A stretch of 64,000 nt of DNA from Thysanoteuthis rhombus (taxonomy: Eukaryota; Mollusca; Cephalopoda; Oegopsida; Thysanoteuthidae). The stretch spans positions 55,587,279 through 55,651,278 of the forward strand of contig OY735207.1 in assembly GCA_963457665.1 (NCBI GenBank). The letters run 5' to 3'. Below, one piece after another: positions 1 to 30,091 of this stretch. Made by a program: the position numbers and the translations under genes. Position 1 is the stretch's first letter, and each line of letters begins with the position of its first letter. The notes below the pieces were generated by a model. That model saw only the letters and a list, made by a program, of their open reading frames with translations. It had not been told where the DNA came from and made no database searches.

Positions 1-2772
1 TTTTCGGACCATAGATTAGTAAGGGCCCGAATGAATTTAGGTATAGCTAAGCCCTTCAAGTCTGGTTACTGGAAATTCAACACATCCCTCGTGGATATGG
101 AGGATTTTCGGGACCAGCTAACATCACTAATCCAGCGGGAACTGACGGGGGCTATCCTGGGTAATAAATTCTGGGGGAACCTCAAAAACAAAATTAGGTC
201 TTTTGCTGCCGATTACAGTAGGCGACTCAACCTAGTGAGACTAGCGGCACAAAAGGCACTAGAAGATCGGATCGAGAGGGCGGTGGAGGGAGGGGACTCT
301 AGCCAGGTTAAGATAGCTAAGGCAGAGTTGGCCTCCTTGCATGCCAAGAAGGATCAAGCTCTAGTAGTTAGAGCTAGATTAAAAAGAATGTCCCCCGAGG
401 CAACGAATATGGCCGATGAGCTGAGGCTAGAAGAAATTAGGAGTGCGTCTAGTCGGTATATCTCCAGCGTCACATCGCCGGACGGACGTCTTGTGACCAC
501 AAACGAAGGTATCTGTGAGGTGTTTCGTGCCAATTTTCAGGAACTATTCACCAGGGAAGCTAGACTGAATTCGGCTCAGTTCGACGCCTATTTAGCTGAC
601 TTCCCTCGCCTTGAGGCGACTGAAGCAGCTGGGTGCGAGGGGCCCATAACAGAGGATGAAATCCGGGAAGCGTTAAAGAGCATCGAGAAGGAGAAGACAC
701 CGGGGATCGATGGTTTACCTTACGAAGTGTATTTGAGGCTGTCGCCCATTTTTGTTCACTTGCTGGCTTTGATCTTTAACCACTGGTTAAAGCAGGGGAG
801 AATCCCCAGCCGCTTTACCAGAGGGGTAGTGAAATTGCTATGCAAGGACAAAGATGGAGGGGACGGGGTAGATAACTTCAGGCCCATAACTCTGCTCAAT
901 ACAGAGTTGAAGATTTTGGCCAAGGTCCTCGCCAACCGACTGCAGACTGTGCTGGAGAGTCTGATTGGCCCCGAGCAGACTTGCTCTGTAAAGGGTCGGA
1001 CTATCCAAGACAATCTGCACACGGTGCGCACGATCATTGAGAAAGTCGACAATGGAGCCGCGCTGATCAAGTTAGATCAGTCCAAAGCCTTCGATAGGGT
1101 CGACCATCGTTTTCTCGAGTCCGTCTTATCCGCGTCTGGCTTCGGTGAGATCTTTCGCTCCTGGATTCGTCTCTTGTATGCATCCCCCAGCTCGGTGGTG
1201 GAAGTGAATGGAGTGAGGTCGAAAGCCTTTCAGTTGTCCAGATCAGTTCGTCAAGGTTGTCCACTTTCGCCGATGCTGTACATTCTTGCGCTGGAACCTT
1301 TCCTGCGCAAAGTAAAGGCGAATCCGGTCCTGCGCGGGCTAACCTTGCCTGGTGGTCACACGCCAGTCAAGTATACCGCCTACGTTGATGACATAACTTT
1401 GCTTGTAACGAGCAGTGCCGAGATCAGGGAAATCAGCGTAGAGATCCAAAGGTATGAGACGGTGACAGGGGCCAAAGCCAACTGCGGCAAGTCTGAGGGC
1501 TTGTTGCTGGACTCGTGGAGAGGGCGCTCTCTCCCTGGTCCCTTTGCCTGGACGGAAGGGCCGTGCAAGATACTCGGCGTCTGGTTCGGTCCCGACCTCC
1601 AGTTGGAGAAAAATTGGTCGGGTGTACTGGAAAAGGTAGAGAAAGCAGTTAATCTGTGGACTCGGAGGAAGCTCTCCTTCAAGGGTAGGGCCGAGGTGTG
1701 CGTCTCTCACATCTACCCCCTTATCCTTTACCGACTTTCAGTGCTCCCTCTTCCGTGTACCGACCAACAAAAGTTGGAAGGTGCCATGTTTCGACTCCTA
1801 TGGGGTCACAGGCACCCTATGGTATCTCGCAAGATCTGTCAGCTCCAACCTGCGGAAGGCGGCCTAGGAATGCCGAACATCAAAGCTCGGCAACATAGCC
1901 TACGCTTGACTTTCTTAGGTCGGATGTGTACGCAAGAAGAGCAGAACGGCGAATTCTGGAAAGAAGACGCCAGGAAGGCTTTCCCAGCCTTAAGAAACGT
2001 GCATTCCGACGACGGGGGTGAGGCCCGCCGTAGACCCCGGGCGGAATGCTCTTTCTATCGAGAATGCCGACACGCTCTCCGAGTTTTTTCTCGGGTGAAG
2101 GTATGCCTCAACGACACCCAGTCGTTGTCGAGGAGGGCATTATATCGGGTAATAGTGAGGGGGTCCGTTCGAGACGAAATGATCGAGGGGCTCGGTTTAA
2201 CGAAGGCGGAGAGTCGCTCAATCTGGCCTTGGACGCCCGGACTGAGGTGCCTCAATAACAACGAGGCGTCCCTCACCTGGCTAGTCATACGGAATGCTCT
2301 CTGGGTCGGCAAACGGCTTTTTGCAGCGGGTCTGGTAGTTTCACCAGAGTGCATGCGCTGTGGTGGAATGGAGGAGTCTATTGAGCACGCCTTCTTCCAC
2401 TGCAGCGTGGTGCAACCGCTGTGCAAGCTGGTTGAAGGCCACATGGTTCGCATCGTCGGGGCACGGTTTTTTGCCTTGGATGCCAGTGTTGTCTGCAGCA
2501 ATGTGTTCCCATCGTTGGAGAAGGACGCACATATAGTGCTAATGTGCTTACTTGGCGTGATGCGAATGGTGATTTGGACGACGCGTCAGAAGGGGTTCCA
2601 CGAAGGAGAGCATTTCACTCCCGAACAACTGATTGCGTTCTTTGGGCACCAGCTCAAAGTCAAAATCAGGGTCGAGAGGAGGAGGCTCCCTTGGTCGGAA
2701 TTCAACGGAAGGTGGGTGAGAGTTGCCCGACTGTGTCGAGTGAAAGGTGCTGAATTAGAGTGGTTTTTTTGA
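1..2772 (+). CDS. LINE ORF2 (endonuclease-reverse transcriptase), partial, copy 1
   Basis: The reading frame is open from base 1 and gives 923 residues, equal to residues 227-1149 of the full ORF2. It begins within the APE-type endonuclease, at the SDH motif near the end of that domain. The reverse transcriptase is complete: motif A (LDQSKAFDRV), GCPLSP and the YVDD catalytic box are all present. A C-terminal CCHC finger (C-x2-C-x8-H-x4-C) follows. The ATG at 31 is internal, not the real start. The protein would nick target DNA and prime cDNA synthesis from the element RNA. Private changes relative to copies 3-5 include N for D in AVNLWTRR and R for G in ERRRLPW. RT details (LLNTELKILAKVLANRL, LLYASPSS, VRQGCPLSPMLY) point to the Tx1 branch of the L1 group. 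Confidence 0.9.
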   Translation, partial: FSDHRLVRARMNLGIAKPFKSGYWKFNTSLVDMEDFRDQLTSLIQRELTGAILGNKFWGNLKNKIRSFAADYSRRLNLVRLAAQKALEDRIERAVEGGDSSQVKIAKAELASLHAKKDQALVVRARLKRMSPEATNMADELRLEEIRSASSRYISSVTSPDGRLVTTNEGICEVFRANFQELFTREARLNSAQFDAYLADFPRLEATEAAGCEGPITEDEIREALKSIEKEKTPGIDGLPYEVYLRLSPIFVHLLALIFNHWLKQGRIPSRFTRGVVKLLCKDKDGGDGVDNFRPITLLNTELKILAKVLANRLQTVLESLIGPEQTCSVKGRTIQDNLHTVRTIIEKVDNGAALIKLDQSKAFDRVDHRFLESVLSASGFGEIFRSWIRLLYASPSSVVEVNGVRSKAFQLSRSVRQGCPLSPMLYILALEPFLRKVKANPVLRGLTLPGGHTPVKYTAYVDDITLLVTSSAEIREISVEIQRYETVTGAKANCGKSEGLLLDSWRGRSLPGPFAWTEGPCKILGVWFGPDLQLEKNWSGVLEKVEKAVNLWTRRKLSFKGRAEVCVSHIYPLILYRLSVLPLPCTDQQKLEGAMFRLLWGHRHPMVSRKICQLQPAEGGLGMPNIKARQHSLRLTFLGRMCTQEEQNGEFWKEDARKAFPALRNVHSDDGGEARRRPRAECSFYRECRHALRVFSRVKVCLNDTQSLSRRALYRVIVRGSVRDEMIEGLGLTKAESRSIWPWTPGLRCLNNNEASLTWLVIRNALWVGKRLFAAGLVVSPECMRCGGMEESIEHAFFHCSVVQPLCKLVEGHMVRIVGARFFALDASVVCSNVFPSLEKDAHIVLMCLLGVMRMVIWTTRQKGFHEGEHFTPEQLIAFFGHQLKVKIRVERRRLPWSEFNGRWVRVARLCRVKGAELEWFF

Positions 2773-2994
2773 GATCTATTGGTTAATTAAGGATTTTGCA
2801 GTCCTGACACGAACGTGCTAACCCAGCCCAGGTTAGGATAGATTAGATTTTCCTTTTCTGTTAGCCAACAGTTTCTTAGCTAGGGAGAGAATGATCATCA
2901 GCCCCCCTTTTTTTTCTGTCCTCCACTTTTTTCGATTCCCATCCCCTCCCCCTCTAGATGACAGAAGGTAAAGTTTTCCAGAGGATGTTTGAGA

Positions 2995-2997
<3 letters not shown>

Positions 2998-3033
<36 letters not shown>
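2998..3033 (+). repeat. Poly-T tract, 36 nt, in 3' UTR of copy 1
   Basis: This is an uninterrupted T run on the element's coding strand. It lies at the same place in every copy but differs in length: 36, 33, 38, 37 and 35 nt in copies 1 to 5. It sits about 230 nt after the ORF2 stop. It may be a fixed structural part of the RNA or the poly-A of an old antisense insertion. Confidence 0.95.
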
Positions 3034-3135
3034 CTGTCTCGACATCCATCTTTTCGTCTGGTTAAATTACTGTTCTGCCATGTTAGGTCTTTTGTGGGGG
3101 GTCACATACTAATTTCGTTTTCGTTTTTTTTTTCC

Positions 3136-3226
3136 TGTAAATATATATCAGTCATTGGGGTTCATTTTTATTTGTAAATATTCATCATAATTTTATTCCC
3201 CCCCCACACACACAAAATTGTAAATA
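3136..3226 (+). promoter_or_regulatory. Cluster of three Pumilio-type motifs (TGTAAATA)
   Basis: Exact TGTAAATA octamers start at 3136, 3173 and 3219 in the ORF2 3' UTR. The octamer fits the PUF/Pumilio recognition consensus UGUANAUA. The three motifs are kept in every copy, for example in copy 2 within about 9730-9820. Binding by a host PUF protein is inference. Confidence 0.35.
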
Positions 3227-3445
3227 GGGGTTTAGAGTAGTTTTTACATCATAGAGAGAATCTGACTTTATGGTAAATGCAGTATGAAAGAGACCAGGAA
3301 AAATGTGTTGTTTTGGTGAATGGATGTATATAGTGTGATTGGGTCAGTGCATGAGACTAGCTAAGATAAGATTAGGAATAGAGTTGACCAGTCCTTATAC
3401 CCCATTCCCCCCTTCGACTTCATGTCATATTTCTCTCTTTCAGAG

Positions 3446-3451
3446 AATAAA
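3446..3451 (+). terminator. Poly(A) signal AATAAA, copy 1
   Basis: A canonical AATAAA lies 5-10 nt before the junction heptamer. Cleavage 10-30 nt downstream would fall at or just past the junction, inside the next unit's leader. Confidence 0.55.
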
Positions 3452-3455
3452 TAAT

Positions 3456-3462
3456 CACAGAT
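3456..3462 (+). repeat. Junction heptamer CACAGAT (copy 1 / copy 2)
   Basis: CACAGAT separates the AATAAATAAT end of one unit from the CGCTCGAC start of the next. It recurs at all four internal junctions and at the array's outer 3' edge, where it runs into unrelated DNA. It is best read as a target-site duplication or a retained target. It could instead be the last bases of the element. Confidence 0.6.
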
Positions 3463-3693
3463 CGCTCGACGAGATTGTTGTGACTTTTTTTGGCAAAAAA
3501 AAAAAAAAAGACAAGTTTCCTGCGACCACACCGAACAAAATAACGGACTAGTAGGACCCCCTTGAAACTCTAGTTCGAAAAGATAAGCCCTTGGTTTTTT
3601 TTGACTCGATTTGACTCAAATTGACTCGATTTTTTTTTTTTATTATTTCGATTTTGTTGTTTGTCTCGATTTTGTATTTTTTTCTTTCCCTTC
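3463..3693 (+). promoter_or_regulatory. 5' leader of LINE copy 2
   Basis: This 231-nt stretch lies between the junction and the ORF1 ATG. Near its start a T7 run faces an A15 run (3495-3509) across GGC, a potential hairpin. Further on, GACTCGATTT, GACTCAAATT, TTTCGATTTTG and GTCTCGATTTTG form a loose series of TCGATTT repeats at about 3602-3675. In a tandem array it lies directly behind the previous unit's 3' end. No TATA box was recognised. An internal promoter here is expected for a LINE but is not shown. Confidence 0.45.
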
Positions 3694-5910
3694 ATGGCCG
3701 ACGAGGCCAGGAGGGCCTTGTTTGCTTCCCCCGATAAGGGGGAGGGCGGGGGCACATCCACACCCCCTAAAATAGGGAAAAAAAACAAAAAAAAACAAGA
3801 AAAAATGTCTACAACACAGACAAACAGTACAAGTGAAAAGAATTCAGACATGAAAAAATCCCCCGTCCATGAAGGGAGGGGGGAAAATACAGACTCGCCG
3901 ATTCCGGCGGGACAACAACAGCAACAAGAAAAGACAAGTGGGGACTCTCCTAACGTTTGGTCATCCCCTCCCGTAATAAATACAGTCAATGTGGCGGAAT
4001 TCGTCAAGCGTTGCCAGACATACAGTCACCTTGTAAAAGAGGACGGCTTACTGGTGGACTTGGTCGAATTGAAAGACATTGAGAAAAAAATGGTGTCCGT
4101 CTTTTTGGTCGACAAGAAGTCAAACCGAATTGTCCGATCAAACAAAGACATAGTGTTGAAAGCACTGGCTAGCTTAGGAATCAAAGCCAAACAAGTTGTT
4201 AAAGGCGATGGCTTTGCGATGTGGGACGTACTATTGCCCACTGAACAGGACTGTTCAGATCTCCTGCGCCGAGAGCTCCAAACGAAGGAGCATTACATTC
4301 GTGTTGAGTATCTCGGCCGGAGAAGGACCCGGGTAATAGCACATGAGGTGCCCAGCTTCGTACTCGGGGAACATATCGGGGCTTTTCTCCTGAAATACGG
4401 AGAAATTGTCTCGGTTGACTCCGAGGCGATGCGTGGGGAGTGGCGTTTTGATCTTATGATCGACAGGAAGGCGTTCCTGGCCATTCCCAACTATTTGGAC
4501 ATAGGTGGTCGGAGGCGACTGCCTCTTATCGTAAAAGGTAGGAGGCCAGTCTGCTGGATATGCGGGGAGGCCGGTCACCTCGCCGCTATCTGCAAAAAGA
4601 AACCGTCCAGCCTGACGCAAGACCCTTCCCACTCAGTTTCTGTGACCGCCCAAAAGGAGGCTCCCGTAGTCTCGCCTACTGCCATGACTGGAGGAATCCA
4701 GTCAGATGCCGGGAGAGGTAAAAGTCTCCCCTCACCTAAACCGTCGACTCCGTCACCAAAGGTGGTGGCACAAAAAGAGAAGACGGAGGGGGAGTGGCAG
4801 GTAGTAGGTCGTAGTGGGAAGAAGGCCCAAATAGAAGCACCCCTGTTGCCACATATCCTAAAGCGAACCGACACCGACAGTCCCCAAGGAGAGACCCCGC
4901 AGTCTTATGCGGAACGGGCTAGAGTGGGGGGTTACGCTAGTCCAGGACGAATAGGGAAGGAAAAGGCGGCGGCACTTCTTCAACAACTAAAGTCCAGGCA
5001 GCCAGCAGGGAGGGTTACCCCTCCGCCCTCCCCGAAAACATTACAAAGTCCACCCACGAAAAAATCAACCCCAGAAAAACCAAAACTGACAGTACTAGGA
5101 AAAAAATCTACCCCCCAAAAAACACCAATACCTTCACCTACACCCCCATTACCGCCCACATCACCGCTACCTCCGCCGCCGCCTCCACCGTTGATTATGT
5201 TTCCTCCCTCAACAACAGCAACACCAGCAGCCACACCAAAACCTTCCCCAAAAGTAACACCATCAGCATCACCAGCAACAACACCAGCAACAACACCAAC
5301 ATCAGCAACAACAACAACAAGCACACCCATGTCACCTACACAATCGGCCTCACAAAAGAGGCCGAGAAGCCCAGCCGGGGGTGATACCGGCGAGCCCACC
5401 AAAAAAGAGAAAAAAATCAGACACAAGAGAGGGGTCCACATCTGCCGTGTCGACCCGGACATTCTCGACAAGACAAAACTCCAGCAGCAGGCCCTGAGGG
5501 ATTTAAAGGTCCTCCACAACTTCCGGTTCGTCGAACCCGGAAGACGTGATGTGGAGGACCCTACCTTGTTCCCAGGGCTAAAGAAAGTACTGACTGTGGT
5601 CCGGGTTGGTGACACCTCACGGCAGGTGTGGGACATGTTAAAAGAAGCCAACTTAGCTTTCAAAATGTCATCACCGCTGGCTGTCTGGCATCATCCAGAC
5701 CTCCACAAACTGAAAAACTTTTGTTCAGGGAGGGTCCCCGTCTTCATGCACCCCTCCCTTTATAGGGCAGCAAAACTAACATTCCCTAGGCACGTCGGCG
5801 GCGTGTCCCTGGATGGCACCATCAGAACTGAGATGGGCACTGATCCTATGGGACCCGCTGTCGGTGTGCTATCACCGGCAATGTTCGCGTCAGGAGGGCA
5901 ACGCCAATAG
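3694..5910 (+). CDS. LINE ORF1, CCHC zinc-knuckle RNA-binding protein, copy 2
   Basis: A protein of 738 residues counted from ATG 3694 (MADEARRALF), the first ATG after the leader and present in every copy. Residues 28-60 are lysine-rich, and a short Q run lies near 72-78. Residues about 207-285 look like the RRM-like part of L1-group ORF1 proteins and lead into one CCHC knuckle (C287-x2-C-x4-H-x4-C300). A proline/serine/threonine-rich linker with a short P8-type run follows near 493-500. A basic patch (KRPRSP, KKEKK) then opens a conserved C-terminal region (about 551-738) with no family I recognise. The role is expected to be RNA binding in the retrotransposition RNP. From about 4930 to 5735 this copy differs heavily from copies 3-5, while both flanks are nearly identical. 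It lacks the lysine/proline decapeptide repeats of the other copies. Confidence 0.9.
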   Translation: MADEARRALFASPDKGEGGGTSTPPKIGKKNKKKQEKMSTTQTNSTSEKNSDMKKSPVHEGRGENTDSPIPAGQQQQQEKTSGDSPNVWSSPPVINTVNVAEFVKRCQTYSHLVKEDGLLVDLVELKDIEKKMVSVFLVDKKSNRIVRSNKDIVLKALASLGIKAKQVVKGDGFAMWDVLLPTEQDCSDLLRRELQTKEHYIRVEYLGRRRTRVIAHEVPSFVLGEHIGAFLLKYGEIVSVDSEAMRGEWRFDLMIDRKAFLAIPNYLDIGGRRRLPLIVKGRRPVCWICGEAGHLAAICKKKPSSLTQDPSHSVSVTAQKEAPVVSPTAMTGGIQSDAGRGKSLPSPKPSTPSPKVVAQKEKTEGEWQVVGRSGKKAQIEAPLLPHILKRTDTDSPQGETPQSYAERARVGGYASPGRIGKEKAAALLQQLKSRQPAGRVTPPPSPKTLQSPPTKKSTPEKPKLTVLGKKSTPQKTPIPSPTPPLPPTSPLPPPPPPPLIMFPPSTTATPAATPKPSPKVTPSASPATTPATTPTSATTTTSTPMSPTQSASQKRPRSPAGGDTGEPTKKEKKIRHKRGVHICRVDPDILDKTKLQQQALRDLKVLHNFRFVEPGRRDVEDPTLFPGLKKVLTVVRVGDTSRQVWDMLKEANLAFKMSSPLAVWHHPDLHKLKNFCSGRVPVFMHPSLYRAAKLTFPRHVGGVSLDGTIRTEMGTDPMGPAVGVLSPAMFASGGQRQ

Positions 5911-5919
5911 ATTAACAAG

Positions 5920-8900
5920 ATGGCTCTCTATTTAGCAAGTTTGAATGGTCGTGGTTGCCGGAATGAGTCGAGAAGAGCTAGACTCTGTCGTCTCCTCCGG
6001 CACCTCGACGTGAGTATTTGTTGTTTACAGGAGACTCATTTTATTTCGAGCGACAATGAGAGTGTGCTGTCTCGAGATTTCCGTCTCTTTTCAGCATATT
6101 TTGATTACCGCTCCAGAGGTGTCTCTTGGCTAATAAGCCATTCTTTGAATGCGGTGTGTTCCCTTGTGTATGCAGACCCGGCGGGCAGATTGTGCGTCGT
6201 TGATGTTACCATAAGAGGGGAGGCTTTTCGTTTGATTGGGGTTTATGCGCCCAACGGCCAGGGTGAGCGAATCAACTTCTTTCGGCAGATCGATCAGTTC
6301 GTAGTTCCGTCGAGACGGCTAGTGTTAGCGGGTGATTGGAATGCCGTCCTTGATCCCGATATAGACCGAGGGGTAAATAGGGGAACTAACAACGGTGACG
6401 TGATTCCGTTTCGGGATTTGATCAACAGGCTTGACCTGGTGGATAAATTCCGAAACGAACACCCCCGCCAAGTAGTATGGACTTGGACTAATAGTGGCGA
6501 CCCGAGTTCGGTGCAACGTTCCAGTTACATCGATCGGGTCTTAGCTAGAAGAGTCGACCATAAGTTTTTGGAATGTCCAAGTTTCCATAGCGTCCCCTTT
6601 TCGGACCATAGATTAGTAAGGGCCCGAATGAATTTAGGTATAGCTAAGCCCTTCAAGTCTGGTTACTGGAAATTCAACACATCCCTCGTGGATATGGAGG
6701 ATTTTCGGGACCAGCTAACATCACTAATCCAGCGGGAACTGACGGGGGCTATCCTGGGAAATAAATTCTGGGGGAACCTCAAAAACAAAATTAGGTCTTT
6801 TGCTGCCGATTACAGTAGGCGACTCAACCTAGTGAGACTAGCGGCACAAAAGGCACTAGAAGATCGGATCGAGAGGGCGGTGGAGGGAGGGGACTCTAGC
6901 CAGGTTAAGATAGCTAAGGCAGAGTTGGCCTCCTTGCATGCCAAGAAGGATCAAGCTCTAGTAGTTAGAGCTAGATTAAAGAGAATGTCCCCCGAGGCAA
7001 CGAATATGGCCGATGAGCTGAGGCTAGAAGAAATTAGGAGTGCGTCTAGTCGGCATATCTCCAGCGTCACATCGCCGGACGGACGTCTTGTGACCACAAA
7101 CGAAGGTATCTGTGAGGTGTTTCGTGCCAATTTTCAGGAACTATTCACCAGGGAAGCTAGACTGAATTCGGCTCAGTTCGACGCCTATTTAGCTGACTTC
7201 CCTCGCCTTGAGGCGACTGAAGCAGCTGGGTGCGAGGGGCCCATAACAGAGGATGAAATCCGGGAAGCGTTAAAGAGCATCGAGAAGGAGAAGACACCGG
7301 GGATCGATGGTTTACCTTACGAAGTGTATTTGAGGCTGTCGCCCATTTTTGTTCACTTGCTGGCTTTGATCTTTAACCACTGGTTAAAGCAGGGGAGCAT
7401 CCCCAGCCGCTTTACCAGAGGGGTAGTGAAATTGCTATGCAAGGACAAAGATGGAGGGGACGGGGTAGATAACTTCAGGCCCATAACTCTGCTCAATACA
7501 GAGTTAAAGATTTTGGCCAAGGTCCTCGCCAACCGACTGCAGACTGTGCTGGAGAGTCTGATTGGCCCCGAGCAGACTTGCTCTGTAAAGGGTCGGACTA
7601 TCCAAGACAATCTGCACACGGTGCGCACGATCATTGAGAAAGTCGACAATGGAGCCGCGCTGATCAAGTTAGATCAGTCCAAAGCATTCGATAGGGTCGA
7701 CCATCGTTTTCTCGAGTCCGTCTTATCCGCGTCTGGCTTCGGTGAGATCTTTCGCTCCTGGATTCGTCTCTTGTATGCATCCCCCAGCTCGGTGGTGGAG
7801 GTGAATGGAGTGAGGTCGAAAGCCTTTCAGTTGTCCAGATCAGTTCGTCAAGGTTGTCCACTTTCGCCGATGCTGTACATTCTTGCGCTGGAACCTTTCC
7901 TGCGCAAAGTAAAGGCGAATCCGGTCCTGCGCGGGCTAACCTTGCCTGGTGGTCACACGCCAGTCAAGTATACCGCCTACGTTGATGACATAACTTTGCT
8001 TGTAACGAGCAGTGCCGAGATCAGGGAAATCAGCGTAGAGATCCAAAGGTATGAGACGGTGACAGGGGCCAAAGCCAACTGCGGCAAGTCTGAGGGCTTG
8101 TTGCTGGACTCGTGGAGAGGGCGCTCTCTCCCTGGTCCCTTTGCCTGGACGGAAGGGCCGTGCAAGATACTCGGCGTCTGGTTCGGTCCCGACCTCCAGT
8201 TGGAGAAAAATTGGTCGGGTGTACTGGAAAAGGTAGAGAAAGCAGTTGATCTGTGGACTCGGAGGAAGCTCTCCTTCAAGGGTAGGGCCGAGGTGTGCGT
8301 CTCTCACATCTACCCCCTTATCCTTTACCGACTTTCAGTGCTCCCTCTTCCGTGTACCGACCAACTAAAGTTGGAAGGTGCCATGTTTCGACTCCTATGG
8401 GGTCACAGGCACCCTATGGTATCTCGCAAGATCTGTCAGCTCCAGCCTGCGGAAGGCGGCCTAGGAATGCCGAACATCGAAGCTCGGCAACATACCCTGC
8501 GCTTGACTTTCTTAGGTCGGATGTGTACGCAAGAAGAGCAGAACGGCGAATTCTGGAAAGAAGACGCCAGGAAGGCTTTCCCAGCCTTAAGAAACGTGCA
8601 TTCCGACGACGGGGGTGAGGCCCGCCGTAGACCCCGGGCGGAATGCTCTTTCTATCGAGAATGCCGACACGCTCTCCGAGTTTTTTCTCGGGTGAAGGAA
8701 TGCCTCAACGACACCCAGTCGTTGTCGAGGAGGGCATTATATCGGGTAATAGTGAGGGGGTCCGTTCGAGACGGAATGATCGAGGGGCTCGGTTTAACGA
8801 AGGCGGAGAGTCGCTCAATCTGGCCTTGGACGCCCGGACTGAGGTGCCTCAATAACAACGAGGCGTCCCTCACCTGGCTAGTCATACGGAATGCTCTCTG

Positions 8901-9591: not shown

Positions 9592-9594
<3 letters not shown>

Positions 9595-10048: not shown

Positions 10049-10060
10049 TAATGACAAGAG

Positions 10061-19275: not shown

Positions 19276-19284
19276 ACTAACAAG

Positions 19285-22200: not shown

Positions 22201-22734
22201 GGACTGAGGTGCCTCAATAACAACGAGGCGTCCCTCACCTGGCTAGTCATACGGAATGCTCTCTGGGTCGGCAAACGGCTTTTTGCAGCGGGTCTGGTAG
22301 TTTCACCAGAGTGCATGCGCTGTGGTGGAATGGAGGAGTCTATTGAGCACGCCTTCTTCCACTGCAGCGTGGTGCAACCGCTGTGCAAGCTGGTTGAAGG
22401 CCACATGGTTCGCATCGTCGGGGCACGGTTTTTTGCCTTGGATGCCAGTGTTGTCTGCAGCAATGTGTTCCCATCGTTGGAGAAGGACGCACATATAGTG
22501 CTAATGTGCTTACTTGGCGTGATGCGAATGGTGATTTGGACGACGCGTCAGAAGGGGTTCCACGAAGGAGAGCGTTTCACTCCCGAACAACTGATTGCGT
22601 TCTTTGGGCACCAGCTCAAAGTCAAAATCAGGGTCGAGAGGGGGAGGCTCCCTTGGTCGGAATTCAACGGAAGGTGGGTGAGAGTTGCCCGACTGTGTCG
22701 AGTGAAAGGTGCTGAATTAGAGTGGTTTTTTTGA
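19285..22734 (+). CDS. LINE ORF2, APE endonuclease-reverse transcriptase, copy 4
   Basis: 1149 residues; endonuclease, RT (YVDD box) and CCHC finger intact. It shares ANCRKSEG and NDTRSL with copy 3 and adds KPLKSGYW just after the endonuclease domain. It starts 9 nt after ORF1. Confidence 0.95.
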   Translation: MALYLASLNGRGCRNESRRARLCRLLRHLDVSICCLQETHFISSDNESVLSRDFRLFSAYFDYRSRGVSWLISHSLNAVCSLVYADPAGRLCVVDVTIRGEAFRLIGVYAPNGQGERINFFRQIDQFVVPSRRLVLAGDWNAVLDPDIDRGVNRGTNNGDVIPFRDLINRLDLVDKFRNEHPRQVVWTWTNSGDPSSVQRSSYIDRVLARRVDHKFLECPSFHSVPFSDHRLVRARMNLGIAKPLKSGYWKFNTSLVDMEDFRDQLTSLIQRELTGAILGNKFWGNLKNKIRSFAADYSRRLNLVRLAAQKALEDRIERAVEGGDSSQVKIAKAELASLHAKKDQALVVRARLKRMSPEATNMADELRLEEIRSASSRYISSVTSPDGRLVTTNEGICEVFRANFQELFTREARLNSAQFDAYLADFPRLEATEAAGCEGPITEDEIREALKSIEKEKTPGIDGLPYEVYLRLSPIFVHLLALIFNHWLKQGRIPSRFTRGVVKLLCKDKDGGDGVDNFRPITLLNTELKILAKVLANRLQTVLESLIGPEQTCSVKGRTIQDNLHTVRTIIEKVDNGAALIKLDQSKAFDRVDHRFLESVLSASGFGEIFRSWIRLLYASPSSVVEVNGVRSKAFQLSRSVRQGCPLSPMLYILALEPFLRKVKANPVLRGLTLPGGHTPVKYTAYVDDITLLVTSSAEIREISVEIQRYETVTGAKANCRKSEGLLLDSWRGRSLPGPFAWTEGPCKILGVWFGPDLQLEKNWSGVLEKVEKAVDLWTRRKLSFKGRAEVCVSHIYPLILYRLSVLPLPCTDQQKLEGAMFRLLWGHRHPMVSRKICQLQPAEGGLGMPNIKARQHSLRLTFLGRMCTQEEQNGEFWKEDARKAFPALRNVHSDDGGEARRRPRAECSFYRECRHALRVFSRVKVCLNDTRSLSRRALYRVIVRGSVRDEMIEGLGLTKAESRSIWPWTPGLRCLNNNEASLTWLVIRNALWVGKRLFAAGLVVSPECMRCGGMEESIEHAFFHCSVVQPLCKLVEGHMVRIVGARFFALDASVVCSNVFPSLEKDAHIVLMCLLGVMRMVIWTTRQKGFHEGERFTPEQLIAFFGHQLKVKIRVERGRLPWSEFNGRWVRVARLCRVKGAELEWFF

Positions 22735-22952
22735 AAGTCTATTGGTTAGTAAGGATTTTGCAGTCCTGACACGAACGTGCTAACCCAGCCCAGGTTAGGA
22801 TAGATTAGATTTTCCTTTTCTGTTAGCCAACAGTTTCTTAGCTAGGGAGAGAATGATCATCAGCCCCCCTTTTTTTTCTGTCCTCCACTTTTTTCGATTC
22901 CCATCCCCTCCCCCTCTAGATGACAGAAGGTAAAGTTTTCCAGAGGATGTTT

Positions 22953-22957
<5 letters not shown>

Positions 22958-22994
<37 letters not shown>
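22958..22994 (+). repeat. Poly-T tract, 37 nt, copy 4
   Basis: Equivalent 3' UTR position; the flanking GAGAGG is reduced to GAGAG here. Confidence 0.95.
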
Positions 22995-23401
22995 CTCGAC
23001 ATCCATCTTTTCGTCTGGTTAACTTGCTGTTCTGCCATGTTAGGTCTTTTGTGGGGGGTCACATACTAATTTCGTTTTCGTTTTTTTTTTCCTGTAAATA
23101 TATATCAGTCATTGGGGTTCATTTTTATTTGTAAATATTCATCATAATTTTATTCCCCCCCCACACACAAAAATTGTAAATAGGGGTTTAGAGTAGTTTT
23201 TACATCATAGAGAGAATCTGACTTTATGGTAAATGCAGTATGAAAGAGACCAGGAAAAATGTGTTGTTTTGGTGAATGGATGTATATAGTGTGATTGGGT
23301 CAGTGCATGAGACTAGCTAAGATAAGATTAGGAATAGAGTTGACCAGTCCTTATACCCCATTCCCCCCTTCGACTTCATGTCATATTTCTCTCTTTCAGA
23401 G

Positions 23402-23407
23402 AATAAA
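23402..23407 (+). terminator. Poly(A) signal AATAAA, copy 4
   Basis: Same layout as copies 1 and 3. Confidence 0.5.
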
Positions 23408-23411
23408 TAAT

Positions 23412-23418: not shown

Positions 23419-23640
23419 CGCTCGACAGTTTTGCTGTTACTTTTTTTGAAAAAAAAAAAAAAGACAAGTTTCCTGCGACCACACCGAACAAGATTACGGA
23501 CTAGTAGGACCCCCTCGAAACTCTAGTTCGAAAAGATAAGCCCTTGGTTTTTTGACTCGATTTGACTCAAATTGACTCGACTTTTTTTATTATTTCGATT
23601 TTGTTGTTTGTCTCGATTTTGTATTTTTTTCTTTCCCTTC
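23419..23640 (+). promoter_or_regulatory. 5' leader of LINE copy 5
   Basis: 222 nt of the copy 3/4 type, with one TCGATTT element changed to TCGACTT. Confidence 0.4.
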
Positions 23641-25947
23641 ATGGCCGACGAGGCCAGGAGGGCCTTGTTTGCTTCCCCCGATAAGGGGGAGGGCGGGGGC
23701 ACATCCACACCCCCTAAAATAGGGAAAAAAAAACAAAAAAAACAAGAAAAAATGTCTACAACACAGACAAACAGTACAAGTGAAAAGAATTCAGACATGA
23801 AAAAATCCCCCGTCCATGAAGGGAGGGGGGAAAATACAGACTCGCCGATTCCGGCGGGACAACAACAGCAACAAGAAAAGACAAGTGGGGACTCTCCTAA
23901 CGTTTGGTCATCCCCTCCCGTAATAAATACAGTCAATGTGGCGGAATTCGTCAAGCGTTGCCAGACATACAGTCACCTTGTAAAAGAGGACGGCTTACTG
24001 GTGGACTTGGTCGAATTGAAAGACATTGAGAAAAAAATGGTGTCCGTCTTTTTGGTCGACAAGAAGTCAAACCGAATTGTCCGATCAAACAAAGACATAG
24101 TGTTGAAAGCACTGGCTAGCTTAGGAATCAAAGCCAAACAAGTTGTTAAAGGCGATGGCTTTGCGATGTGGGACGTACTATTGCCCACTGAACAGGACTG
24201 TTCAGATCTCCTGCGCCGAGAGCTCCAAACGAAGGAGCATTACATTCGTGTTGAGTATCTCGGCCGGAGAAGGACCCGGGTAATAGCACATGAGGTGCCC
24301 AGCTTCGTACTCGGGGAACATATCGGGGCTTTTCTCCTGAAATACGGAGAAATTGTCTCGGTTGACTCCGAGGCGATGCGTGGGGAGTGGCGTTTTGATC
24401 TTATGATCGACAGGAAGGCGTTCCTGGCCATTCCCAACTATTTGGACATAGGTGGTCGGAGGCGACTGCCTCTTATCGTAAAAGGTAGGAGGCCAGTCTG
24501 CTGGATATGCGGGGAGGCCGGTCACCTCGCCGCTATCTGCAAAAAGAAACCGTCCAGCCTGACGCAAGACCCTTCCCACTCAGTTTCTGTGACCGCCCAA
24601 AAGGAGGCTCCCGTAGTCTCGCCTACTGCCATGACTGGAGGAATCCAGTCAGATGCCGGGAGAGGTAAAAGTCTCCCCTCACCTAAACCGTCGACTCCGT
24701 CACCAAAGGTGGTGGCACAAAAAGAGAAGACGGAGGGGGAGTGGCAGGTAGTAGGTCGTAGTGGGAAGAAGGCCCAAATAGAAGCACCCCTGTTGCCACA
24801 TAGCCTAAAGCGAACCGACACCGACAGTCCCCAAGGAGAGACCCCGCAGTCTTATGCGGAACGGGCTAGAGTGGGGGGTTATGCTAGTCCAAGTCGTGAA
24901 AAAAAAGAAATGGCGGCGGCGTTGCTCATAAAACTTAAGTCCAGACAGCCAGCAGAGAGGGTTACCCCTCCACCCTCTCCCCGAACAATACACAGTCCTT
25001 CAATCAAAAAATCACCCCCCAAAAAAACAGAATTGACAGTTTTAAAAAAATCACCTCCCAAAGAAACACAATTGACAGTTTTAAAAAAATCTTCCCCCCA
25101 AAAAACTGAAATAACAACTTTGAAAAAATCCCCCCCCAAAAAAACAGAACTGACAACATCTCCCAGACACACACCCAGACACACACCCAAGAAAAATCAG
25201 ACAAAACCAGAACTCACATCTTCTCCAACTCCTCCATTGCCGCCCACTCTACTGTTATTTTCGCAACCTCCCCCGCCACCGCCGCCGCCGCCGCCGCCAT
25301 CACCGCCGCCGTCGTCGTCCCCCCCATCAACACCATCAACAATATCAACAACACCAACACCTACACAAACACCAACACAATCGGCCTCACAAAAGAGGCC
25401 GAGAAGCCCAGCCGGGGGAGACGCCGGCGAGCCAACAAAAAAAGAAAAAAAAGTGAGACACAAGAGAGGGGTCCACATCTGCCGTGTCGACCCGGACATT
25501 ATAGAAAAATCGAAGCTTCAGCAGCAAGCCCTAAGGAATTTAAAAGTCCTCCACAGTTTCCGGTTCGTCGAGCCCGGAAGACGCGACGTGGAGGACCCCA
25601 CCTTGTTCCCAGGGCTTAAAAAGCTGCTAACAGTAGTCCGGGTCGGAGACACCTCGCGGCAGGTGTGGGATATGCTCCGGGAGGCCAATGGGGCCTTCCA
25701 AATGACCACACCACTGGCTGTCTGGCATCATCCAGACTTGCAGAAACTAAAGAACTTTTGCTCTGGGAGGGTCCCCGTCTTCATGCACCCCTCCCTTTAT
25801 AGGGCAGCAAAACTAACATTCCCTAGGCACGTCGGCGGCGTGTCCCTGGATGGCACCATCAGAACTGAGATGGGCACTGATCCTATGGGACCCGCTGTCG
25901 GTGTGCTATCACCGGCAATGTTCGCGTCAGGAGGGCAACGCCAATAG
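23641..25947 (+). CDS. LINE ORF1, CCHC zinc-knuckle RNA-binding protein, copy 5
   Basis: 768 residues from MADEARRALF; RRM-like segment and CCHC knuckle at 287-300. The N-terminal half resembles copy 2 and the linker and C-terminal domain resemble copies 3 and 4, with its own variants in the KKSPP-type repeats (SIKKSPP, TQLTVLKK, TEITTL) and TKPELTSSP before the poly-proline run. One codon is missing in the basic patch (EPTKKEKK, where copies 3 and 4 have EPTTKKEKK). Confidence 0.9.
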   Translation: MADEARRALFASPDKGEGGGTSTPPKIGKKKQKKQEKMSTTQTNSTSEKNSDMKKSPVHEGRGENTDSPIPAGQQQQQEKTSGDSPNVWSSPPVINTVNVAEFVKRCQTYSHLVKEDGLLVDLVELKDIEKKMVSVFLVDKKSNRIVRSNKDIVLKALASLGIKAKQVVKGDGFAMWDVLLPTEQDCSDLLRRELQTKEHYIRVEYLGRRRTRVIAHEVPSFVLGEHIGAFLLKYGEIVSVDSEAMRGEWRFDLMIDRKAFLAIPNYLDIGGRRRLPLIVKGRRPVCWICGEAGHLAAICKKKPSSLTQDPSHSVSVTAQKEAPVVSPTAMTGGIQSDAGRGKSLPSPKPSTPSPKVVAQKEKTEGEWQVVGRSGKKAQIEAPLLPHSLKRTDTDSPQGETPQSYAERARVGGYASPSREKKEMAAALLIKLKSRQPAERVTPPPSPRTIHSPSIKKSPPKKTELTVLKKSPPKETQLTVLKKSSPQKTEITTLKKSPPKKTELTTSPRHTPRHTPKKNQTKPELTSSPTPPLPPTLLLFSQPPPPPPPPPPPSPPPSSSPPSTPSTISTTPTPTQTPTQSASQKRPRSPAGGDAGEPTKKEKKVRHKRGVHICRVDPDIIEKSKLQQQALRNLKVLHSFRFVEPGRRDVEDPTLFPGLKKLLTVVRVGDTSRQVWDMLREANGAFQMTTPLAVWHHPDLQKLKNFCSGRVPVFMHPSLYRAAKLTFPRHVGGVSLDGTIRTEMGTDPMGPAVGVLSPAMFASGGQRQ

Positions 25948-25957
25948 ATTAAACAAG

Positions 25958-28900
25958 ATGGCTCTCTATTTAGCAAGTTTGAATGGTCGTGGTTGCCGGA
26001 ATGAGTCGAGAAGAGCTAGACTCTGTCGTCTCCTCCGGCACCTCGACGTGAGTATTTGTTGTTTACAGGAGACTCATTTTATTTCGAGCGACAATGAGAG
26101 TGTGCTGTCTCGAGATTTCCGTCTCTTTTCAGCATATTTTGATTACCGCTCCAGAGGTGTCTCTTGGCTAATAAGCCATTCTTTGAATGCGGTGTGTTCC
26201 CTTGTGTATGCAGACCCGGCGGGCAGATTGTGCGTCGTTGATGTTACCATAAGAGGGGAGGCTTTTCGTCTGATTGGGGTTTATGCGCCCAACGGCCAGG
26301 GTGAGCGAATCAACTTCTTTCGGCAGATCGATCAGTTCGTAGTTCCGTCGAGACGGCTAGTGTTAGCGGGTGATTGGAATGCCGTCCTTGATCCCGATAT
26401 AGACCGAGGGGTAAATAGGGGAACTAACAACGGTGACGTGATTCCGTTTCGGGATTTGATCAACAGGCTTGACCTGGTGGATAAATTCCGAAACGAACAC
26501 CCCCGCCAAGTAGTATGGACTTGGACTAATAGTGGCGACCCGAGTTCGGTGCAACGTTCCAGTTACATCGATCGGGTCTTAGCTAGAAGAGTCGACCATA
26601 AGTTTTTGGAATGTCCAAGTTTCCATAGCGTCCCCTTTTCGGACCATAGATTAGTAAGGGCCCGAATGAATTTAGGTATAGCTAAGCCCTTCAAGTCTGG
26701 TTACTGGAAATTCAACACATCCCTCGTGGATATGGAGGATTTTCGGGACCAGCTAACATCACTAATCCAGCGGGAACTGACGGGGGCTATCCTGGGTAAT
26801 AAATTCTGGGGGAACCTCAAAAACAAAATTAGGTCTTTTGCTGCCGATTACAGTAGGCGACTCAACCTAGTGAGACTAGCGGCACAAAAGGCACTAGAAG
26901 ATCGGATCGAGAGGGCGGTGGAGGGAGGGGACTCTAGCCAGGTTAAGATAGCTAAGGCAGAGTTGGCCTCCTTGCATGCCAAGAAGGATCAAGCTCTAGT
27001 AGTTAGAGCTAGATTAAAAAGAATGTCCCCCGAGGCAACGAATATGGCCGATGAGCTGAGGCTAGAAGAAATTAGGAGTGCGTCTAGTCGGTATATCTCC
27101 AGCGTCACATCGCCGGACGGACGTCTTGTGACCACAAACGAAGGTATCTGTGAGGTGTTTCGTGCCAATTTTCAGGAACTATTCACCAGGGAAGCTAGAC
27201 TGAATTCGGCTCAGTTCGACGCCTATTTAGCTGACTTCCCTCGCCTTGAGGCGACTGAAGCAGCTGGGTGCGAGGGGCCCATAACAGAGGATGAAATCCG
27301 GGAAGCGTTAAAGAGCATCGAGAAGGAGAAGACACCGGGGATCGATGGTTTACCTTACGAAGTGTATTTGAGGCTGTCGCCCATTTTTGTTCACTTGCTG
27401 GCTTTGATCTTTAACCACTGGTTAAAGCAGGGGAGAATCCCCAGCCGCTTTACCAGAGGGGTAGTGAAATTGCTATGCAAGGACAAAGATGGAGGGGACG
27501 GGGTAGATAACTTCAGGCCCATAACTCTGCTCAATACAGAGTTGAAGATTTTGGCCAAGGTCCTCGCCAACCGACTGCAGACTGTGCTGGAGAGTCTGAT
27601 TGGCCCCGAGCAGACTTGCTCTGTAAAGGGTCGGACTATCCAAGACAATCTGCACACGGTGCGCACGATCATTGAGAAAGTCGACAATGGAGCCGCGCTG
27701 ATCAAGTTAGATCAGTCCAAAGCATTCGATAGGGTCGACCATCGTTTTCTCGAGTCCGTCTTATCCGCGTCTGGCTTCGGTGAGATCTTTCGCTCCTGGA
27801 TTCGTCTCTTGTATGCATCCCCCAGCTCGGTGGTGGAAGTGAATGGAGTGAGGTCGAAAGCCTTTCAGTTGTCCAGATCAGTTCGTCAAGGTTGTCCACT
27901 TTCGCCGATGCTGTACATTCTTGCGCTGGAACCTTTCCTGCGCAAAGTAAAGGCGAATCCGGTCCTGCGCGGGCTAACCTTGCCTGGTGGTCACACGCCA
28001 GTCAAGTATACCGCCTACGTTGATGACATAACTTTGCTTGTAACGAGCAGTGCCGAGATCAGGGAAATCAGCGTAGAGATCCAAAGGTATGAGACGGTGA
28101 CAGGGGCCAAAGCCAACTGCGGCAAGTCTGAGGGCTTGTTGCTGGACTCGTGGAGAGGGCGCTCTCTCCCTGGTCCCTTTGCCTGGACGGAAGGGCCGTG
28201 CAAGATACTCGGCGTCTGGTTCGGTCCCGACCTCCAGTTGGAGAAAAATTGGTCGGGTGTACTGGAAAAGGTAGAGAAAGCAGTTGATCTGTGGACTCGG
28301 AGGAAGCTCTCCTTCAAGGGTAGGGCCGAGGTGTGCGTCTCTCACATCTACCCCCTTATCCTTTACCGACTTTCAGTGCTCCCTCTTCCGTGTACCGACC
28401 AACAAAAGTTGGAAGGTGCCATGTTTCGACTCCTATGGGGTCACAGGCACCCCATGGTATCTCGCAAGATCTGTCAGCTCCAACCTGCGGAAGGCGGCCT
28501 AGGAATGCCGAACATCAAAGCTCGGCAACATAGTCTACGCTTGACTTTCTTAGGTCGGATGTGTACGCAAGAAGAGCAGAACGGCGAATTCTGGAAAGAA
28601 GACGCCAGGAAGGCTTTCCCAGCCTTAAGAAACGTGCATTCCGACGACGGGGGTGAGGCCCGCCGTAGACCCCGGGCGGAATGCTCTTTCTATCGAGAAT
28701 GCCGACACGCTCTCCGAGTTTTTTCTCGGGTGAAGGTATGCCTCAACGACACCCAGTCGTTGTCGAGGAGGGCATTATATCGGGTAATAGTGAGGGGGTC
28801 CGTTCGAGACGAAATGATCGAGGGGCTCGGTTTAACGAAGGCGGAGAGTCGCTCAATCTGGCCTTGGACGCCCGGACTGAGGTGCCTCAATAACAACGAG

Positions 28901-29407
28901 GCGTCCCTCACCTGGCTAGTCATACGGAATGCTCTCTGGGTCGGCAAACGGCTTTTTGCAGCGGGTCTGGTAGTTTCACCAGAGTGCATGCGCTGTGGTG
29001 GAATGGAGGAGTCTATTGAGCACGCCTTCTTCCACTGCAGCGTGGTGCAGCCGCTGTGCAAGCTGGTTGAAGGCCACATGGTTCGCATCGTCGGGGCACG
29101 GTTTTTTGCCTTGGATGCCAGTGTTGTCTGCAGCAATGTGTTCCCATCGTTGGAGAAGGACGCACATATAGTGCTAATGTGCTTACTTGGCGTGATGCGA
29201 ATGGTGATTTGGACGACGCGTCAGAAGGGGTTCCACGAAGGAGAGCGTTTCACTCCCGAACAACTGATTGCGTTCTTTGGGCACCAGCTCAAAGTCAAAA
29301 TCAGGGTCGAGAGGGGGAGGCTCCCTTGGTCGGAATTCAACGGAAGGTGGGTGAGAGTTGCCCGACTGTGTCGAGTGAAAGGTGCTGAATTAGAGTGGTT
29401 TTTTTGA
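25958..29407 (+). CDS. LINE ORF2, APE endonuclease-reverse transcriptase, copy 5
   Basis: 1149 residues from ATG 25958. An upstream in-frame ATG at 25850 exists only because an extra A in the intercistronic gap joins the frame to out-of-frame ORF1 sequence; the conserved MALYLASLNG start is preferred. All endonuclease, RT and CCHC motifs are intact. It reads ANCGKSEG and NDTQSL like copies 1 and 2, but EGERFTP and VERGRLP like copies 3 and 4. Confidence 0.95.
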   Translation: MALYLASLNGRGCRNESRRARLCRLLRHLDVSICCLQETHFISSDNESVLSRDFRLFSAYFDYRSRGVSWLISHSLNAVCSLVYADPAGRLCVVDVTIRGEAFRLIGVYAPNGQGERINFFRQIDQFVVPSRRLVLAGDWNAVLDPDIDRGVNRGTNNGDVIPFRDLINRLDLVDKFRNEHPRQVVWTWTNSGDPSSVQRSSYIDRVLARRVDHKFLECPSFHSVPFSDHRLVRARMNLGIAKPFKSGYWKFNTSLVDMEDFRDQLTSLIQRELTGAILGNKFWGNLKNKIRSFAADYSRRLNLVRLAAQKALEDRIERAVEGGDSSQVKIAKAELASLHAKKDQALVVRARLKRMSPEATNMADELRLEEIRSASSRYISSVTSPDGRLVTTNEGICEVFRANFQELFTREARLNSAQFDAYLADFPRLEATEAAGCEGPITEDEIREALKSIEKEKTPGIDGLPYEVYLRLSPIFVHLLALIFNHWLKQGRIPSRFTRGVVKLLCKDKDGGDGVDNFRPITLLNTELKILAKVLANRLQTVLESLIGPEQTCSVKGRTIQDNLHTVRTIIEKVDNGAALIKLDQSKAFDRVDHRFLESVLSASGFGEIFRSWIRLLYASPSSVVEVNGVRSKAFQLSRSVRQGCPLSPMLYILALEPFLRKVKANPVLRGLTLPGGHTPVKYTAYVDDITLLVTSSAEIREISVEIQRYETVTGAKANCGKSEGLLLDSWRGRSLPGPFAWTEGPCKILGVWFGPDLQLEKNWSGVLEKVEKAVDLWTRRKLSFKGRAEVCVSHIYPLILYRLSVLPLPCTDQQKLEGAMFRLLWGHRHPMVSRKICQLQPAEGGLGMPNIKARQHSLRLTFLGRMCTQEEQNGEFWKEDARKAFPALRNVHSDDGGEARRRPRAECSFYRECRHALRVFSRVKVCLNDTQSLSRRALYRVIVRGSVRDEMIEGLGLTKAESRSIWPWTPGLRCLNNNEASLTWLVIRNALWVGKRLFAAGLVVSPECMRCGGMEESIEHAFFHCSVVQPLCKLVEGHMVRIVGARFFALDASVVCSNVFPSLEKDAHIVLMCLLGVMRMVIWTTRQKGFHEGERFTPEQLIAFFGHQLKVKIRVERGRLPWSEFNGRWVRVARLCRVKGAELEWFF

Positions 29408-29631
29408 AAGTCTATTGGTTAGTAAGGATTTTGCAGTCCTGACACGAACGTGCTAACCCAGCCCAGGTTAGGATAGATTAGATTTTCTTTTTCTGTTAGC
29501 CAACAGTTTCTTAGCTAGGGAGAGAATGATCATCAGCCCCCTTTTTTTTTCTGTCCTCCACTTTTTTCGATTCCCATCCCCTCCCCCTCTAGATGACAGA
29601 AGGTAAAGTTTTCCAGAGGATGTTTGAGAGG

Positions 29632-29633
<2 letters not shown>

Positions 29634-29668
<35 letters not shown>
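29634..29668 (+). repeat. Poly-T tract, 35 nt, copy 5
   Basis: Equivalent 3' UTR position, preceded by GGGG. Confidence 0.95.
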
Positions 29669-30074
29669 CTCGACATCCATCTTTTCGTCTGGTTAACTTA
29701 CTGTTCTGCCATGTTAGGTCTTTTGTGGGGGGTCACATACTAATTTCGTTTTCGTTTTTTTTTTCCTGTAAATATATATCAGTCATTGGGGTTCATTTTT
29801 ATTTGTAAATATTCATCATAATTTTATTCCCCCCCCACACACAAAATTGTAAATAGGGGTTTAGAGTAGTTTTTACATCATAGAGAGAATCTGACTTTAT
29901 GGTAAATGCAGTATGAAAGAGACCAGGAAAAATGTGTTGTTTTGGTGAATGGATGTATATAGTGTGATTGGGTCAGTGCATGAGACTAGCTAAGATAAGA
30001 TTAGGAATAGAGTTGACCAGTCCTTATACCCCATTCCCCCCTTCGACTTCATGTCACATTTCTCTCTTTCAGAG

Positions 30075-30080
30075 AATAAA
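30075..30080 (+). terminator. Poly(A) signal AATAAA, copy 5
   Basis: Last AATAAA of the array. Transcripts from copy 5 would end in the unique flank. Confidence 0.5.
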
Positions 30081-30084
30081 TAAT

Positions 30085-30091
30085 CACAGAT
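30085..30091 (+). repeat. Outer junction heptamer CACAGAT (end of array)
   Basis: The heptamer is followed by TGCGAGACAGAGGG and not by CGCTCGAC. This is the only place where the 3' flank of the array can be seen, and it shows that the heptamer is also present next to non-element DNA. Confidence 0.6.

What the first reader, a model, noticed from the sequence alone, without database searches (positions are those of the whole stretch)
1..30091. Head-to-tail array of at least five full-size LINEs with open ORFs
LINEs normally scatter as 5'-truncated single copies. Here four complete units plus one partial lie directly abutted with almost constant spacing (6605, 6676, 6675, 6673 bp), and all nine ORF instances are open. 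The RT looks Tx1-clade, a group known to contain site-specific families. Possible causes are serial insertion at one target, unequal exchange, or an assembly or rolling-type amplification. An active or recently homogenised array would act as a retrotransposon factory.
Basis: partly seen in the sequence, partly recalled or inferred. Interest (0 to 1): 0.85.

Follow-up and report, generated by a model that had tools for sequence, protein, structure and literature searches.

The report
Site-specific LINE building self-targeted tandem arrays
A jumping gene in this animal genome appears to land at one short sequence inside another jumping gene and then at the front of its own earlier copies, so that intact copies pile up nose to tail in rows of up to twelve.

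Summary
The window holds the right end of a complete 12-unit head-to-tail array (about 80 kb); both ORFs are open in 12 of 12 units. The arrangement recurs: of 88 element 3' ends found with a junction pattern, 61 run into the next copy's 5' end and 27 into a native target motif. That motif, CACAGATTGCGAGA (972 exact places), lies in the 5' region of a second, R2-like LINE, one copy of which sits just right of the array. Best explanation: site-specific serial insertion. The element inserts before CACAGAT; each insertion leaves CACAGAT plus its own first bases at its left edge, a usable site again, so the array grows leftward without breaking older copies. Adjacent copies share identical tracts anchored at the 5' end in both arrays tested, which suggests that 5' ends are completed from the neighbour. 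R1 of Drosophila forms tandem arrays by the same principle, so this is a new variant of a known kind. New points: an L1/Tx1-group element, a LINE as target, long intact arrays, and the 5' tracts. Long reads and a Tx1 tree could not be run.

The parts
1..3455 (+). unit 8 of the 12-unit array, 3' half (end of ORF2 at 2772, then 3' UTR)
3463..10052 (+). unit 9, complete; second 3' UTR type and divergent ORF1 middle
10053..10060 (+). 8-mer GACAAGAG after unit 9, identical to the 8-mer at the left edge of the whole array
10068..16736 (+). unit 10, complete
16744..23411 (+). unit 11, complete
23419..30084 (+). unit 12, complete, rightmost of the array
10290..12599 (+). ORF1 of unit 10, 769 aa, one CCHC zinc knuckle; equivalents at 3694-5910, 16966-19275, 23641-25947 (only unit 10's was scanned against Pfam)
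5920..9369 (+). ORF2 of unit 9, 1149 aa: APE-type endonuclease, RT, zf-RVT; equivalents at 12609-16058, 19285-22734, 25958-29407 and partial 1-2772 (only unit 9's was scanned)
3456..3477 (+). junction CACAGAT + CGCTCGAC..., read as a re-created insertion site; the same at 10061, 16737 and 23412
30085..30098 (+). native target motif CACAGATTGCGAGA at the array's right edge
30099..31193 (+). 5' region of the host LINE (first monomer, with about 8 copies of a 64-bp repeat at 30325-30846)
31194..31207 (+). second target motif CACAGATTGCGAGA in the host LINE's 5' region, empty
31564..35034 (+). ORF of the host LINE (1156 aa, RT nearest to R2 among solved chains), open

Best explanation
This is a target-specific, APE-type LINE of the L1/Tx1 group. 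Shown: its copies share one joint, AATAAATAAT then CACAGAT, at a site ..AAGAA^CACAGATTGCGAGA in the 5' region of a different, R2-like LINE, and stand head to tail because one copy's 3' end meets CACAGAT at the 5' end of the next copy. Inferred: the bottom strand is nicked just before CAC and primes reverse transcription (TPRT). Each insertion leaves CACAGAT followed by the element's own start (CGCTCGACRG, somewhat like native TGCGAGACAG), which can be cut again, so newer copies land on the left of older ones and no ORF is broken. Copies with a second 3' UTR type carry an 8-mer after their end that mostly equals the left edge's 8-mer, as expected if it was copied as part of a target-site duplication. 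Inferred, less sure: the 5' end of a new copy is often finished by homology with its right-hand neighbour, giving shared 5' tracts and full-length units in the arrays read.
For: Target: 7 of 7 native left edges printed carry one repeat and 12 of 12 native right edges read CACAGAYTGCGAGA (window included); 16 native left edges by pattern, control 0; the 30 target sites fetched (the first listed, not a random sample) have the same left context in two main versions, one more diverged. Single insert on C3: left CACAGATTGCGAGACAG fused to the element, right CACAGATTGCGAGACAGAGGG, a duplication of up to 17 bp. Junctions: 35 of 88 AATAAATAAT+CACAGATCGC, 26 of 88 with an 8-mer before CACARATCGC, 25 of 88 into CACAGATTGC, 2 of 88 an 8-mer then CACAGATTGC; control 0 (counted from its list). 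The internal 8-mers equal the left edge of the same array in 20 of 23 joints, 6 of 7 arrays; 2 of 5040 label permutations reach 20 joints, 4 of 5040 reach 6 arrays. Tracts: C10 neighbours are closer than in 2000 shuffled orders at 0-125 bp (p 0.001) and 125-260 bp (p 0.035); C21 p 0.0008 at 0-130 bp. ORFs: both open in 20 of 21 units; the 40 best-scored ORF2 copies of 18119 loose candidates have no stop; ORF2 dN/dS mean 0.26 over the 192 of 210 pairs with dS above 0.005.
Against: 28 of 83 exact 3' ends of the first type are not followed by CACARATYGC. Of those 28 I read 12: 2 are at the target with a mutated motif (C25 joint, C8 edge), 8 lie inside the element's own sequence, 2 in other DNA; 10 of the 11 read still begin CAC. 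So specificity is not absolute. Likeness of the element's start to the target is modest: 16 of 22 at the left edge of C10 (next best window of that unit 14), but outside CACAGAT 10 of 15, which other windows equal. Three of 23 internal 8-mers do not match their left edge, and joints of one array are not independent. Of the 22 other windows, 2 have p below 0.05, one of them in the 3' UTR (6260-6560, p 0.034), so a weak 3' likeness of neighbours is not excluded. Gene conversion could also give shared 5' tracts. No transcript, cleavage or insertion data.
Confidence: 0.78

Rival explanations
1. One insertion was amplified by unequal crossing over (or replication slippage) alone into an array, as for satellite DNA.
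For: Units 10 and 11 are 0.27% apart over their whole length; units are mosaics, so exchange among copies does occur; one 3' UTR window also shows neighbour likeness (p 0.034).
Against: A one-step crossover makes a chimera whose 5' part equals its right neighbour and whose 3' part equals its left neighbour; the strong likeness is at the 5' end only. Some C10 units are closer to units on other contigs than to any C10 unit (unit 2 and C4: 0.55%; unit 9 and C26: 0.81%). It does not by itself make the first head-to-tail junction, nor put left-edge 8-mers inside arrays.
Confidence: 0.1
2. Mixed origin, a version of the best explanation: junctions founded by serial insertion, later length change and homogenisation mainly by unequal exchange and gene conversion.
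For: Whole-length near-identity of units 10 and 11 and blocks of units with the same 5' type.
Against: Neighbour likeness is weak or absent along the body of the C10 units.
Confidence: 0.35
3. Assembly artefact: reads of one copy laid end to end.
For: Long near-identical repeats are hard to assemble; I could not map reads.
Against: All 12 units of C10 differ (0.27-4.55%), T-tract lengths differ, the edges match a real target repeat, and unit-length spacing recurs in 17 other groups.
Confidence: 0.03

Closest known systems
R1 of Drosophila, tandem arrays in 28S rDNA (Stage and Eickbush 2009, PMC2718515; passages and section 13 read)
   Same: APE-type (recalled for R1), site-specific LINE; head-to-tail copies separated by the target-site duplication; proposed mechanism is insertion into the duplication at the 5' end of an earlier copy; flanking target sequence on the RNA 3' end proposed to pair with the target.
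   Different: R1 is another clade and targets rRNA genes; the highest levels reported there average two to three R1 per inserted unit. Here the target is another LINE, one array has 12 intact units, and neighbours share 5'-anchored tracts.
Target-specific families Mutsu (5S rRNA), Keno (U2 snRNA), Dewa (tRNA-Leu spacer) (PMC3706591, PMC4640811, passages read; that Mutsu and Dewa are Tx1 clade is recalled)
   Same: Non-LTR retrotransposons with a precise target in a repeated sequence; Tx1-clade ones carry an APE-type endonuclease.
   Different: Targets are RNA genes or spacers; the passages read do not describe long intact arrays. Clade membership not tested here.
Tx1-1_ACar of anole telomeres, and telomeric elements such as HeT-A/TART, Zepp1, GilM/GilT (PMC10088271, passages read)
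   Same: Retrotransposons concentrated at one repeated target; HeT-A/TART/TAHRE stand head to tail.
   Different: Telomeric targets; here the native target is in another LINE.
Utopia-1_NVit, occasionally in tandem in U2 genes (PMC4640811, passages read)
   Same: Site-specific LINE found in tandem at its target.
   Different: Restriction-like endonuclease; tandem state occasional.
Tx1L inserted in the Tx1D transposon of Xenopus (recalled, no call)
   Same: A LINE whose specific target is another mobile element.
   Different: Tx1D is a DNA-type element; here the target is a LINE's 5' region.

Membership tests
L1/Tx1 group of APE-type LINEs | APE-type endonuclease followed by LINE RT in ORF2, RT closer to L1 than to R2 | tested here: met
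   Pfam Exo_endo_phos 1.2e-13, RVT_1 5.2e-32; LINE-1 ORF2p 2.6e-77 against R2 7.7e-22
L1/Tx1 group of APE-type LINEs | separate ORF1 upstream with a nucleic-acid-binding motif | tested here: met
   ORF1 738-769 aa; unit 10's shows the pattern C-x2-C-x4-H-x4-C, Pfam zf-CCHC 7.5e-4, 19.9 bits, just under the 20.8 cut-off
Tx1 clade | RT groups with Tx1, Keno, Mutsu, Dewa in a tree | not testable with these tools
   I had no reference sequences of these families; zf-RVT at the C-terminus is compatible, from recall only
Target-specific LINE | insertions share one nucleotide position in one repeated sequence | tested here: met
Target-specific LINE | few or no insertions elsewhere | tested here: inconclusive
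   55 of 83 exact 3' ends have the motif; of the 28 others 12 were read: 2 at a mutated target, 8 in own sequence, 2 elsewhere
R1-type tandem arrays by insertion into the 5' duplication | copies separated by the target-site duplication | tested here: met
   CACAGAT, or 8-mer + CACARAT, between units in 61 of 88 junctions; duplication of up to 17 bp at a single insert
R1-type tandem arrays by insertion into the 5' duplication | 28S rDNA target (R1 itself) | tested here: not met
   target is the 5' region of another LINE; so it works like R1 arrays but is not filed as R1; an R1-clade RT tree was not run

The most novel reading that the evidence does not exclude
Arrays repair themselves: a cDNA that stops short is finished by homology with the 5' end of the copy it has landed on, so each new unit is full length and keeps an intact site and ORF1 start. 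The element thus escapes 5' truncation, the usual fate of LINEs, by targeting itself, while using another LINE's 5' region as its foothold.
Probability: 0.35. Interest if true: 0.85.

Novelty: new variant of a known kind. Interest (0 to 1): 0.7.

Why it matters
LINEs are normally seen as scattered, often 5'-truncated single copies. Here one is found in long rows of intact copies, with an inferred direction of growth, a LINE as its specific landing site, and a pattern that bears on the poorly understood last step of LINE integration (how the 5' end is joined). It offers a natural record of successive insertions at one site, and a candidate enzyme with a short defined target.

Tried and rejected
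Rfam and ARAGORN found no RNA gene at the target; the two hits near it (E 1.9 and 7.9) are chance-level. A resemblance of window 31183-31207 to 5.8S rRNA and of about 30110-30135 to U5 snRNA was considered from recall and dropped, as neither family was reported there. In the viral-contig collection nothing matched the six peptide patterns of ORF2 or the 25-base junction. The reading 'CACAGAT is the element's 3' end' was dropped because the second 3' UTR type has eight other bases first, and because the motif is in the empty target. A strong claim that the element's 5' end mimics the target was weakened after a scan of one unit. Unequal crossing over as sole cause was set aside. Host identity: the repeats and contig sizes look cephalopod to me, from recall only; not tested. 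Copy number of the host LINE by protein search did not complete. Literature: 10 answered searches, listings only, plus passages of PMC2718515 (and its section 13), PMC3706591, PMC4640811, PMC10088271, PMC4700185, PMC13218726. None of the listings showed this element; the library is partial.
Full report
WHAT IS THERE. The five junctions and their spacings are exactly as described, and self-comparison shows units abutting end to end. Complete units of C10 are 6589-6693 bp (one of them, unit 9, was cut a few bases short there). A unit has a 5' UTR of about 230 bp, ORF1 (738-769 aa in the window) with a zinc knuckle, ORF2 (1149 aa) with APE-type endonuclease, RT and zf-RVT, and a 3' UTR of about 700 bp with a T-tract (33-38 in the five window units) and the end AATAAATAAT, without a poly(A) tail. 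ORF2 is nearest to LINE-1 ORF2p among solved structures, far ahead of R2.

THE WHOLE ARRAY. The window lies at C10:55587279-55651278 of a 2.73-Gb assembly of 514 contigs. Reading leftwards gave a complete array of 12 full units, C10:55537530-55617362, with the target repeat on both sides. Both ORFs are open in 12 of 12 units, and in 20 of 21 when nine units from other places are added; the exception is ORF1 of the C30 unit, and one of the 21 (C36, L020) lacks its first bases because the fetched stretch began inside it. Pairwise differences within C10 run from 0.27% to 4.55%.

IT RECURS. The exact junction CACAGATCGCTCGAC occurs 44 times, control 1. A looser pattern for 3' ends gave 88 places, control 0: 35 run into CACAGATCGC, 26 into an extra 8-mer then CACARATCGC, 25 into CACAGATTGC and 2 into an 8-mer then CACAGATTGC (counted from its list; native or not is judged by the motif, not read in each case). 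So 61 of 88 lead into another copy. With 11 more exact 3' ends that lie in these series or carry the junction 15-mer at their 5' end, there are 99 ends in 26 groups; apart from C10, 17 groups show unit-length spacing, the largest with 10 ends (C21), 10 (C36, two target sites), 8 (C26, two target sites), 7 (C2), 6 (C25 and C36) and 5 (C8 and C37). The best 40 scored ORF2 matches, of 18119 loose candidates, are all open and most lie in such series. That is the best end of a ranking, not a sample: weaker, broken or scattered copies were not scored.

THE TARGET. All 7 native left edges printed, and 16 found by pattern with control 0, show one repeat. The 12 native right edges printed, window included, read CACAGAYTGCGAGA followed by one of two kinds of sequence. 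Both kinds occur in the window: at 30085, and at 31194 upstream of an open ORF of 1156 aa whose RT is nearest to R2 among solved chains (R2 1.3e-23, LINE-1 2.5e-17; its endonuclease was not tested). The exact 14-mer occurs at 972 places, control 6. The 30 that were fetched, the first in the list, share the left context in two main versions, one more diverged; their right sides fall into the same two kinds with variants. So the target is a site in the 5' region of a second LINE. On C3, 43 listed sites stand mostly 0.7-1.5 kb apart in a tandem block; the end of it that I read is made of the host LINE's 5' region and holds one insertion of the element, with a duplication of up to 17 bp, CACAGATTGCGAGACAG.

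HOW IT WORKS. Shown: a fixed 3' joint before CAC; target copies on both sides; head-to-tail joints that carry CACAGAT. Inferred: bottom-strand nick before CAC, TPRT, and re-use of the site formed by the older copy's 5' end. In this model the rightmost unit is the oldest and the left edge keeps its sequence. A check: the 8-mers found before CACARAT at internal joints equal the left edge's 8-mer of the same array in 20 of 23 joints from seven arrays; 2 of 5040 permutations of labels reach that, and 4 of 5040 reach the six matched arrays. The seven arrays are those with both a left edge and at least one such joint; joints of one array are not independent, and C2 and C37 share a label. C10 (GACAAGAG) and C18 (GATAAGAG) have 8-mers seen at no other listed joint or edge. 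The three misses are two joints in a C36 array and one in C21; source-templated tails could explain them.

5'-ANCHORED TRACTS. In C10, 6 of 11 adjacent pairs are identical, or differ by only an indel or one base, from the first base to a break between about 160 and 1740 bp, then diverge. Neighbours beat shuffled orders at 0-125 bp (p 0.001) and 125-260 bp (p 0.035, 2000 shuffles). Among the 22 further windows two have p below 0.05 (2660-2960, p 0.017; 6260-6560, p 0.034), about what that many tests give. In C21 (11 units, first 390 bp only) p is 0.0008 for 0-130, 0.032 for 130-265 and 0.045 for 265-386 (5000 shuffles); units 10 and 11 differ by 1 base in 1350 and then part sharply. One-step unequal crossover would also make the 3' side equal to the left neighbour, which is not clearly seen. 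I read this as completion of 5' ends by homology with the neighbour; gene conversion with 5' polarity is not excluded.

EXCEPTIONS. Of 83 exact 3' ends of the first type, 55 are followed by CACARATYGC and 28 are not. I read 12 of the 28: a mutated array joint on C25 (CACCGATCGC), a mutated native edge on C8 (CACAGACTGC), eight inside the element's own sequence and two elsewhere; 10 of the 11 begin CAC. Eleven of the 28 are in C12:2.4-3.95 Mb; of the five read there, three lie in the element's own ORFs and two in other DNA. Whether these arose by insertion or by later rearrangement was not tested.

MOSAICISM. Unit 9 differs from its neighbours by about 1-2% over much of its length, but by 9-39% per 300-column window in the middle of ORF1 next to units 8 and 10, and is nearly identical to them just after. 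It shares this ORF1 type with a C26 unit (0.22%). Pairwise dN/dS between unit 9 and units 10-12 is about 0.22 for ORF1 and about 0.5 for ORF2; over all ORF2 pairs with dS above 0.005 (192 of 210) the mean is 0.26. Two ORF1 types thus appear to recombine within the family.

AGAINST KNOWN SYSTEMS. R1 of Drosophila forms tandem arrays separated by its 14-bp duplication, explained by insertion into the duplication at the 5' end of an earlier copy, with an average of two to three elements per inserted unit in the highest cases (PMC2718515, section 13). That is the same principle. What differs here is the L1/Tx1-group element, the target in another LINE, the length and intactness of arrays, and the 5' tracts. 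Ten literature searches did not list a description of this element, but the library is partial.

LIMITS.

Noticed in passing
C3:30537319-30589147: 43 listed target motifs, mostly 0.7-1.5 kb apart, a tandem block whose end (L059) is made of the host LINE's 5' region and holds one insertion of the element.
   Followed up: partly
L022, L024, L026, L029: 3' parts of the host LINE lie beside or shortly before its own 5' monomers, so the host LINE may itself stand head to tail.
   Followed up: no
window 30325-30846: About eight near-identical copies of a 64-bp repeat inside the host LINE's 5' region.
   Followed up: no
C12:2439865-3950314: Eleven exact 3' ends without the target motif; of five read, three lie in the element's own ORFs and two in other DNA.
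   Followed up: partly
window about 4920-5750 (ORF1 of unit 9): ORF1 middle belongs to a second, strongly divergent type embedded in otherwise 1-2% divergent sequence; a recombinant unit.
   Followed up: partly
L019 (C30:7774000-7782500): Two successive target sites of one host LINE are both occupied by the element, about 600 bp apart.
   Followed up: partly
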